A stretch of 64,000 nt of DNA from an uncultured Verrucomicrobiota bacterium (GTDB taxonomy: Bacteria; Verrucomicrobiota; Kiritimatiellia; CAJWTS01), in NCBI GenBank assembly GCA_913047795.1, contig CAJWTS010000002.1, positions 1-64,000 on the forward strand. Reading direction: 5' to 3'. Below the pieces are notes generated by a model. That model was not told the DNA's origin and searched no databases. It worked only from the letters and a program-made list of their open reading frames with translations. The position numbers were made by a program, and so were the translations under genes. Shown here one piece after another: positions 33,317 to 36,177 of this stretch; the stretch's first letter is position 1, and each line of letters opens with the position of its first letter.

Positions 33317-33416
33317 CGGGCCGGGTCCTATGCATCGAGCGGTGGCAGAACCCCGTCAGGACCGGAAGGTAGCAGCGGCATGTTATACGAGCGAGTGCCG
33401 TAGGTCGCCTGGTCCG
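33317..33416 (+). ncRNA. ffs: Signal recognition particle 4.5S RNA (small bacterial type)
   Basis: The apical loop signature is clear: gtcaggaccggaaggtagca at 33355-33374 matches the conserved GTCAGGYCCGGAAGGNAGCAGC block. Flanking arms pair as in 4.5S RNA: gggccgggtccta (from 33318) with taggtcgcctggtcc (to 33415). Ends are set from these arms and may be off by several bases. The RNA binds Ffh to target membrane proteins to the translocon. It sits just upstream of dnaX, as in Bacillus subtilis. Confidence 0.9.
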
Positions 33417-33472
33417 TGCGTGTGATCGGGCATCCCGCTGCGTGGCGGTGCCGTGCTAAGCGAATATACAAA

Positions 33473-35188
33473 ATGGCATACGAAGTCATAGCCCGGAAGT
33501 GGCGACCACAGCAGTTCGAAGACGTGGTGGGTCAGGACCACGTGACGACCACGCTGAAGAATGCGATTACGACTAGTCGATTGGCTCACGCCTACCTGTT
33601 CGTCGGGCCGCGGGGCATCGGCAAGACCACACTGGCGCGAATTTTTGCGCGTGCCCTGAATTGCGACAAGGGTCCGACGGTGACGCCCTGCGGAGATTGC
33701 GACATCTGCAAGGAGATTGCGACTGGATCCAGCCTGGATGTCTTGGAAATCGACGGCGCATCGAACAACGGGGTCGACCAGGTGCGCGATCTGCGCGAAA
33801 CGATCGCCTACACTCCCGTGCGGGGCAGCTACAAGATTTACATTATCGATGAAGTTCACATGCTCAGCACGCAGGCATTCAACGCCTTGCTCAAGACGCT
33901 GGAAGAACCGCCGCCCCACGTTAAGTTCATCTTTGCCACGACCGAGCCGCAACGGATCCTGCCCACGATTCTTTCGCGGGTGCAGCGTTTTGACCTGCGC
34001 CGGATTCCCGCGGCCCTGATCATCGAGCGTCTGGCGATGATCGCCAGGGCTGAGGGGGTAAAGGTGGCGGACGATGCGTTGCTGGCCATCGCGCGGGGCT
34101 CGGACGGTGGATTGCGCGATGCCGAGTCCGCCCTCGACCAGTTGATCTCGTTCAAGGGCGACGCGATTACGGAGCCCGACGTTCTCGCTGTGTTTGGCCT
34201 GGTCGCGCGCGAAACCCTGGAGCGCCTTGCGGCAGCGATTCTGGGTGGTGATGTTGTCAGCATACTTGAGATTGTGGCTGAACTCGACGCCGCCGGGAAA
34301 GACCTTCAGCGCCTGGTGATCGAGTTGCTTGAGCATTATCGGAACGTGTTGGTCTGCATCGAGCTTGGCGGGGATCTTTCTGACGGCGAATGGACCGAAG
34401 CTCAGGTTGCGGTGCTGAAGGAACAGGCCGCGACGACGCAGGTGGGTCGCGTGTTGCGGCTGACGGATGTATTGATCTCAACTGACAACCGCTTGCGCCA
34501 CGCGCTCTCGAAGCGAACAATTCTTGAAACGGCCTTGATTCGCTGTGCACGGGCGGCGACCGTCGCCTCGCTGGATGAAGTCATGGAAGCGGTGAACGCC
34601 CTGCGTGGCGCCGTGGCGTGCGAGCAGAATGACGTGGCGGCGGTGCCAACGCCGGCGACCACGTCCAAGCCGCGCTCGAAGGCAACTCCGCCGGTGGCGG
34701 AACCGGCCGCCCCTCAGCCCGCTCCGACGATGACGAATTCGGCTCAAAAAAAAAGACCGGTAATCGCCGATGAAGGCGCTTTCCTGGAGGGCAACTGGGA
34801 CGATATCCTGCGTCGTGTTTCGGTTTACGCTGTAACGGCGCGGGAGTGCCTGGCGGACGCCCGTCCGCTGACGATCGAGGACGCACACGTCGTGATCGGC
34901 TTCGAGCCTGAATTTGAGGAAAACATGAAAAAAGCACAATCGCCGCGCGTTTCACGCGGCATACAGCACGTGCTCTCCGAGATCCTGCAACGGCCGGTTA
35001 GCGTGGGGTTCAAGGTAATCGAAGAAACGGATACGCGGCCGATACCATCGGATCAAGGGGCGGTTGAGCATGAAGCCGCGCAGTCGGAAGAGCATTCCGG
35101 CGCATGGGCGGATAACCCCGCCGTTCGTAACGCAATCGAAGTTTTTAAGGGGTCGATCATTGATATTCGTGAAGCGGGTGCGAAGTAG
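33473..35188 (+). CDS. dnaX: DNA polymerase III subunits gamma and tau
   Basis: The 571-residue product is the clamp-loader ATPase. It has Walker A GPRGIGKTT (Lys51), four zinc cysteines (Cys64, 73, 76, 79), IIDEVHML, the sensor segment FIFATTEPQRILPTI and LSRVQRFDLRRI. The ATG at 33473 begins the family's usual MAYEVIARKWRPQ; the frame upstream lies beyond the 4.5S RNA and is not coding. A run of nine A (34746-34754) in the Pro/Ala-rich hinge could allow slippage: both other frames stop within nine codons, giving a 429- or 433-residue short form close in size to E. coli gamma (431). It heads the dnaX-ybaB-recR group. Confidence 0.93.
   Translation: MAYEVIARKWRPQQFEDVVGQDHVTTTLKNAITTSRLAHAYLFVGPRGIGKTTLARIFARALNCDKGPTVTPCGDCDICKEIATGSSLDVLEIDGASNNGVDQVRDLRETIAYTPVRGSYKIYIIDEVHMLSTQAFNALLKTLEEPPPHVKFIFATTEPQRILPTILSRVQRFDLRRIPAALIIERLAMIARAEGVKVADDALLAIARGSDGGLRDAESALDQLISFKGDAITEPDVLAVFGLVARETLERLAAAILGGDVVSILEIVAELDAAGKDLQRLVIELLEHYRNVLVCIELGGDLSDGEWTEAQVAVLKEQAATTQVGRVLRLTDVLISTDNRLRHALSKRTILETALIRCARAATVASLDEVMEAVNALRGAVACEQNDVAAVPTPATTSKPRSKATPPVAEPAAPQPAPTMTNSAQKKRPVIADEGAFLEGNWDDILRRVSVYAVTARECLADARPLTIEDAHVVIGFEPEFEENMKKAQSPRVSRGIQHVLSEILQRPVSVGFKVIEETDTRPIPSDQGAVEHEAAQSEEHSGAWADNPAVRNAIEVFKGSIIDIREAGAK
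34745..34756 (+). promoter_or_regulatory. Candidate A9 slippage site producing a gamma form of DnaX
   Basis: The sequence reads c-aaa-aaa-aaa-g in the hinge after domain III (codons 425-428: Q K K R). Adding one A leads to a TGA after residue 433; losing one leads to a TAA after residue 429. Thermus thermophilus dnaX uses an A9 run by transcript slippage and E. coli uses A AAA AAG by ribosomal frameshifting to make gamma. Function here is inferred from position and outcome. Confidence 0.55.
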
Positions 35189-35574: not shown

Positions 35575-36177
35575 ATGAGTACGGACGAACCGCTTGCGCG
35601 CCTGACGGCGTCGCTCAGTCGCTTGCCGGGCATCGGTCGCAAGTCGGCGGAGCGTATGGCGGTGCAGATTGCGCGCGATACGGACGGTCTGCTGATGGAG
35701 ATTGCACACGCATTGAAGGATGTGCACGAGAACGTTCGCTGCTGCGGTCAATGCGGCAATATCACGACGACCGAGAGTGATCCCTGTCGGCTATGCGTGG
35801 ATCCCTCGCGGGACGACGCCCTGCTCTGTGTTGTCGAGGAACCGGCGGACATTGTTGCCATCGAGCGCTCGGGTGGCTATCGCGGACGCTATCACGCCTT
35901 GATGGGAAAACTGTCGCCGATCAGGGGCCAGGGACCGGACGAACTTACCATCGGTAAACTGCTCGAACGTGTCGCATCGGCCGGCGTGACGGAGATCGTG
36001 CTGGCGCTCAGCACGGATGTCGAAGGCGACGCGACCGCGAGTTATCTCGCCGAGCATTTGGATGCGAAGGGCGTCCGGGTTTCGCGACTGGCATTTGGCT
36101 TGCCCGCGGGTAGCGGTATCGGGTACTCGGACGCCGTGACCCTTGCGCGTGCCATGAATGGGCGCCAGTCCATCTAG
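35575..36177 (+). CDS. recR: Recombination mediator protein RecR
   Basis: At 200 residues this is a standard RecR. It has a helix-hairpin-helix (SRLPGIGRKSAERMA), a zinc finger with Cys57, Cys60, Cys71 and Cys74, and the Toprim domain (LLCVVEEPADIVAIER, then YHALMGKLSPI and LALSTDVEGDATA). The C-terminal Walker-B-like FGLPAGSGIGYSDAVTL follows. It forms a ring clamp that, with RecF/RecO, loads RecA at gaps. It follows ybaB after 25 bp and precedes yggS after 17 bp, so it is likely part of one transcript. Confidence 0.95.
   Translation: MSTDEPLARLTASLSRLPGIGRKSAERMAVQIARDTDGLLMEIAHALKDVHENVRCCGQCGNITTTESDPCRLCVDPSRDDALLCVVEEPADIVAIERSGGYRGRYHALMGKLSPIRGQGPDELTIGKLLERVASAGVTEIVLALSTDVEGDATASYLAEHLDAKGVRVSRLAFGLPAGSGIGYSDAVTLARAMNGRQSI

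What the first reader, a model, noticed from the sequence alone, without database searches (positions are those of the whole stretch)
34745..34756. A9 slippery run in dnaX that would yield a gamma-sized product
Seen: nine consecutive A in the hinge of dnaX, in the frame c-aaa-aaa-aaa-g. A gain of one A gives a stop after residue 433, a loss of one after residue 429; both alternative frames close at once. Known: E. coli gamma is 431 residues, made by frameshifting; Thermus makes gamma by transcript slippage on A9. Inference: this lineage also makes a short DnaX, by slippage or -1 frameshifting.
Basis: partly seen in the sequence, partly recalled or inferred. Interest (0 to 1): 0.72.

Follow-up and report, generated by a model that had tools for sequence, protein, structure and literature searches.

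The report
Poly-A slippage site in dnaX
A run of nine A's in a DNA-replication gene very probably makes the cell's copying machinery slip so that one gene yields a long and a short clamp-loader protein, a trick known from Thermus that I find kept at exactly 9 or 10 A's across many related bacteria.

Summary
The A9 run is real (34746-34754) and lies in the linker of dnaX between domain III and the tau C-terminal domain. Comparison with relatives strongly supports the inference. Of 155 same-class genomes, 57 (9 of 45 families) carry linker A-runs of exactly 9 or 10; none is longer and only five are 7-8. Both alternative frames close within 11 codons after 97% of runs, against 15% at control positions. 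The nearest relative keeps A9 in a different codon phase. Family f18, one f17 genome and, outside the class, f56 and one f70 genome carry the reversed arrangement. There the gamma stop is in frame right after A9/A10, and the conserved tau C-domain lies in the -1 frame, so tau itself seems to need a shift. I conclude that dnaX makes gamma plus tau by slippage. Transcriptional slippage of the Thermus type is more likely than ribosomal -1 frameshifting, but sequence cannot settle it. Both arrangements are already described (Thermus; Antonov 2013), so this is a new member of a known kind.

The parts
33473..35188 (+). dnaX, 571-aa full-length (tau) DNA polymerase III clamp-loader subunit
   Evidence: Pfam DNA_pol3_delta2 21-177, DNA_pol3_gamma3 232-372, weak DnaX_C 438-520; PDB match to E. 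coli gamma/tau, E 2.5e-80
34746..34754 (+). A9 slippage run, codons CAA AAA AAA AGA (Q425-R428)
   Evidence: conserved as A9/A10 in relatives
34761..34763 (+). TAA that ends translation if one A is lost (429-aa product)
34771..34773 (+). TGA that ends translation if one A is gained or the ribosome slips -1 (433-aa product)
34589..34783 (+). Pro/Ala-rich linker (aa 373-437) between domain III and the tau C-terminal domain, holding the run
   Evidence: Pfam boundaries; sequence
34784..35170 (+). tau C-terminal domain, lost from the short products
   Evidence: weak DnaX_C match; profile built from the relatives, E 6.9e-41
33319..33417 (+). small SRP RNA gene just upstream of dnaX (context only)
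   Evidence: Rfam RF00169, 69.6 bits
35223..35549 (+). YbaB/EbfC-like gene after dnaX (context only; name from position and sequence)
   Evidence: ORF
35575..36177 (+). recR (context only)
   Evidence: Pfam RecR_HhH, Toprim, RecR_C

Best explanation
dnaX of this bacterium is a dual-product gene. RNA polymerase slips on the A9 run and makes mRNAs with 8, 9, 10, 11 ... A. Those with 9 (or 9 plus or minus 3) A give 571-aa tau. All others run into a stop within about six codons and give a 429-433-aa gamma that keeps the ATPase and oligomerisation domains but lacks the tau C-terminal domain. Shown: the run, its position, the product sizes, the conservation of run length and of early stops in both alternative frames, and relatives in which tau lies across a frame shift at such a run. 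Inferred: that the step is transcriptional rather than ribosomal, the gamma:tau ratio, and that gamma is built into the clamp loader.
For: (1) Linker A-run lengths in 155 genomes are sharply two-peaked: 5:36, 6:4, 7:2, 8:3, 9:40, 10:40, none of 11 or more. Elsewhere in the gene they fall off steadily (5:172, 6:43, 7:20, 8:5, 9:2, 10:1). (2) Of 69 runs in single-ORF genes, the frame entered by gaining one A closes within 6 codons in 100% (control 27%); both frames close within 11 codons in 97% (control 15%; run-less relatives 4%). With one gene per family, 7 of 8 families close both frames; 0 of 4000 null draws reach 7. (3) Closing of the +1 frame as well (7 of 8 families; 3 of 4000 null draws reach that) is expected from two-way indels and is not needed for -1 frameshifting. 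(4) The run occurs in all three codon phases and after P, Q, V, E, S, L, A, D, I or T, so A length and not the peptide is kept. (5) Presence changes at least 9 times on a DnaX tree: repeated gain or loss with the same length. (6) Two-ORF relatives: all ten f18 genomes with a readable run, G041 (f17), 15 f56 genomes and G427 (f70). The -1-frame extension matches the tau C-domain profile (f17 and most f18 E 1e-24 to 1e-44, weaker in G312, G318 and G427) and is conserved as protein within f18 and within f56. (7) No Shine-Dalgarno-like stimulator upstream in f1, f8, f13 or f30.
Against: No transcript or protein data. A9/A10 always contains the ribosomal slippery heptamer A_AAA_AAA, and in f16, f18, many f32 and most f56 runs also the E. 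coli site A_AAA_AAG. RNA folding cannot exclude a stimulator: the proven E. coli hairpin itself scores only z = -0.41 in the same test, and the segment here gives -14.4 kcal/mol, z = -0.57. Nearest run-less families (f4, f19, f2) live without such a run, so two forms are not universally needed. Other A9/T9 runs occur in coding sequence of this genome.
Confidence: 0.72

Rival explanations
1. Programmed -1 ribosomal frameshifting: tandem tRNA-Lys slippage on A_AAA_AAA within the run puts ribosomes in the -1 frame, giving only the 433-aa gamma, as in E. coli.
For: The heptamer is present in frame; the -1 frame closes within 6 codons in every single-ORF run; f16/f18, many f32 and most f56 runs contain the E. 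coli site A_AAA_AAG. E. coli gamma is 431 aa by annotation.
Against: Seven A suffice for that mechanism, yet runs are kept at 9-10; the +1 frame is closed too; codon phase is not fixed; no upstream Shine-Dalgarno-like element in this family; A_AAA_AAA is a weaker site than A_AAA_AAG in E. coli (review PMC5009743).
Confidence: 0.18
2. Accident plus damage control: the run arose by drift and the nearby out-of-frame stops only limit waste from unwanted slippage; gamma has no role.
For: Other A9/T9 runs sit in coding sequence of this genome; many relatives lack the run.
Against: Selection would simply break the run with AAG, yet 57 genomes keep 9-10 A and almost none 7-8; recurrent presence on the tree; two-ORF relatives depend on the shift for tau.
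Confidence: 0.07
3. Gamma, if any, is made by proteolysis of tau as reported for Caulobacter, and the run is irrelevant.
For: Known for Caulobacter crescentus (review PMC5009743); the Pro/Ala-rich linker is a plausible cleavage region.
Against: Does not explain the run length, the stops, or the two-ORF relatives.
Confidence: 0.03

Closest known systems
Thermus thermophilus dnaX transcriptional slippage (Larsen et al. 2000, as summarised in PMC1088944 and PMC5009743)
   Same: Single tau ORF, A9 on the sense strand near the end of the shared part, stops in both other frames soon after, short product lacking the tau C-terminal domain
   Different: No RNA evidence here; other phylum (Verrucomicrobiota); relatives use A10 as well, and one family carries two runs in series
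Two-ORF dnaX with poly-A (Antonov et al. 2013, PMC3711429)
   Same: As in f18, G041, f56 and G427: gamma in frame 0, tau across a -1 shift at A9/A10
   Different: The window's own gene is the single-ORF form; here both forms occur within one class and within one family (f17)
E. coli dnaX programmed -1 ribosomal frameshifting
   Same: Gamma of nearly the same size (431 aa) ending just after an A-rich site
   Different: E. coli has A6G with a Shine-Dalgarno-like element and a hairpin; here A9 with no Shine-Dalgarno-like element, and the +1 frame is closed as well

Membership tests
Thermus-type dnaX transcriptional slippage | A-run of at least 9 on the sense strand in the linker after domain III | tested here: met
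   34746-34754, between Pfam domain III (to aa 372) and DnaX_C (from aa 438)
Thermus-type dnaX transcriptional slippage | stops close by in both other frames | tested here: met
   429- and 433-aa products; class-wide test
Thermus-type dnaX transcriptional slippage | run maintained in relatives | tested here: met
   A9 in the same-family genome; A9/A10 in 57 of 155 genomes
Thermus-type dnaX transcriptional slippage | heterogeneous mRNA length at the run | not testable with these tools
   no transcript data
Thermus-type dnaX transcriptional slippage | two DnaX proteins in the cell | not testable with these tools
   no protein data
E. coli-type -1 programmed frameshifting | slippery heptamer X_XXY_YYZ in frame | tested here: met
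   A_AAA_AAA within CAA AAA AAA; A_AAA_AAG is absent in this gene's linker
E. coli-type -1 programmed frameshifting | upstream Shine-Dalgarno-like stimulator | tested here: not met
   no match of 4 nt or more to AAGGAGGT within 20 nt upstream in f1
E. coli-type -1 programmed frameshifting | downstream stimulatory hairpin | tested here: inconclusive
   not better than shuffles, but the E. coli hairpin is not either
Two-ORF dnaX (Antonov 2013) | gamma in frame 0 and tau C-domain in the -1 frame | tested here: not met
   window gene is one 571-codon ORF; met in f18, G041, f56 and G427

The most novel reading that the evidence does not exclude
In this bacterial class the A9/A10 run is a lineage-wide evolutionary toggle. 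It is repeatedly gained and lost, flips between tau-in-frame and gamma-in-frame by small changes at the run (both states in f17; f18 next to single-ORF f30), and in f32 is doubled into two slippage sites in series, which could set the gamma:tau ratio.
Probability: 0.4. Interest if true: 0.62.

Novelty: new member of a known kind. Interest (0 to 1): 0.5.

Why it matters
Whether gamma matters outside E. coli and Thermus, and how often bacteria use transcriptional slippage on purpose, are still thinly tested. A class with single-ORF, two-ORF, doubled-run and run-less dnaX genes is a natural experiment for both. A gene finder that trusts the frame will truncate or miss tau in the two-ORF species.

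Tried and rejected
RNA folding as a test against ribosomal frameshifting: dropped, because the proven E. coli hairpin scores no better. Shine-Dalgarno enrichment upstream of runs (33% against 18% control): traced mainly to the f32 motif CAGGTG (21 of the 26 matches), so not taken as a stimulator. Scarcity of A9 in the genome: 7 runs, no clear excess or lack beyond the fall from A7 to A8, so not used. Counting lysine codons in the linker: circular, since the runs make the bias. A chance Rfam microRNA match over the run (24.3 bits, cut-off 88) was rejected. The Larsen 2000 paper is not held, so its content is taken from PMC1088944 and PMC5009743. Supplementary Figure S3 of Antonov 2013, which lists the A10 species, could not be read.

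Full report
What is there. The window holds a 571-codon dnaX (33473-35188, +) downstream of a small SRP RNA and upstream of a ybaB-like gene and recR. Nine A stand at 34746-34754. Domain III ends at residue 372 and the tau C-terminal domain begins near 438, so the run (residues 425-428) is in the linker. One extra A gives 433 residues and one fewer gives 429; two more or two fewer give 430 or 432. It is the only A/T run of eight or more in the window. Writing QKKR this way has a probability of about 5e-4 under the window's codon usage.

Relatives. A first search read 57 genomes of the class and a wider survey 346. The class is probably Kiritimatiellia, which is my inference and was not tested. 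I read dnaX of 155 of these genomes, in 45 families. In 57 genomes of nine families the linker carries A9 or A10. Run lengths there are 5:36, 6:4, 7:2, 8:3, 9:40, 10:40, none longer; in the rest of the gene they fall off smoothly. The one other genome of the same family, another genus at 59% identity, has CCT AAA AAA AAA GTT at the same place: same run, different codon phase and residues.

Stops. After 69 runs in uninterrupted dnaX genes, the frame entered by gaining an A closes within six codons every time (control positions in the same genes: 27%), and both frames close within eleven codons in 97% (control 15%; run-less relatives 4%). Relatedness inflates such counts, so I drew one gene per family: 7 of 8 families close both frames in every draw, and none of 4000 null draws reached that. 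Early stops in the +1 frame are not needed for -1 ribosomal frameshifting but are expected if mRNA both gains and loses A.

Reversed arrangement. In family f18 (all ten genomes with a readable run), G041 of f17, fifteen genomes of f56 (same phylum; their site matches that of named Opitutaceae loci, and several are single-contig genomes) and G427 of f70, the A9/A10 is followed in frame 0 by a stop within a few codons, giving a 376-400-aa gamma, while the -1 frame stays open for 100-220 codons. In f17 and most of f18 that frame matches the tau C-domain profile at E 1e-24 to 1e-44; the match is weaker in G312, G318 (f18) and G427 (1e-6 to 1e-11). Within f18 the extensions are 40-73% identical as protein. 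In f56 my profile does not reach it, but the frame is conserved among its members. So in these relatives tau seems to require a shift at the run. f17 has both arrangements, and two-ORF f18 groups with single-ORF f30 on the tree; the presence of a run changes at least nine times (short quick tree, many weak forks).

Mechanism. Sequence does not separate RNA polymerase slippage from ribosomal slippage with certainty. For slippage of the polymerase: length kept at 9-10 although seven A would serve the ribosome; both frames closed; all codon phases used; no Shine-Dalgarno-like element in this family. RNA folding was no help, because the known E. coli hairpin scores no better than shuffles in the same test. 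I put 0.72 on transcriptional slippage, 0.18 on ribosomal -1 frameshifting and the rest on accident or proteolysis.

Known or new. A9 slippage in a single-ORF dnaX is the Thermus thermophilus case (summarised in PMC1088944 and PMC5009743). Two-ORF dnaX with ten A was reported as a new type by Antonov et al. 2013 (PMC3711429); its list of A10 species is in a supplement I could not read, so some of the two-ORF lineages here may be in it. A search of the held papers for dnaX, Verrucomicrobi and frameshift found nothing further. The window's gene is therefore a new member of a known kind. What I have not seen described is the class-wide pattern: exact 9-10 A, repeated gain and loss, both arrangements side by side, and in f32 two runs in series (A9 at residue 377 and A10 at 402-403 in most members, while the two members with one run have A10 at the first place).

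Noticed in passing
L176, L183, L190, L196, L198 and other f32 loci; dnaX residues 377 and 402-403: Family f32 keeps two A-runs in series in dnaX (mostly A9 then A10); the two members with a single run have A10 at the first site.
   Followed up: partly
L280-L295 (f56), L066, L072, L073, L089 (named Opitutaceae/Opitutae): Two-ORF dnaX with A9/A10, the gamma stop within five codons of the run in frame 0 and a conserved -1-frame extension, including several single-contig genomes.
   Followed up: partly
L173-L175, L188, L191, L193, L206, L209, L210, L213, L215, L232 (f33, f35, f36); L043, L045, L046, L048 (f10): DnaX of only about 420-500 aa with no A-run and only a weak or no tau C-domain match: lineages that may have only a gamma-like or much shortened DnaX.
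   Followed up: no
L079, L092, L097, L100, L102: A9 in the dnaX linker also in named Desulfobacteraceae, Gemmata, Ignavibacteria and Bacteroidetes records, so the device may be far more widespread.
   Followed up: no
L170 (own genome, contig C62): One 459-codon stop-to-stop frame carries two T9 runs, each coding FFF; possible unplanned slippage sites.
   Followed up: no
window 33319-33417: Small SRP RNA gene directly upstream of dnaX (Rfam RF00169).
   Followed up: yes
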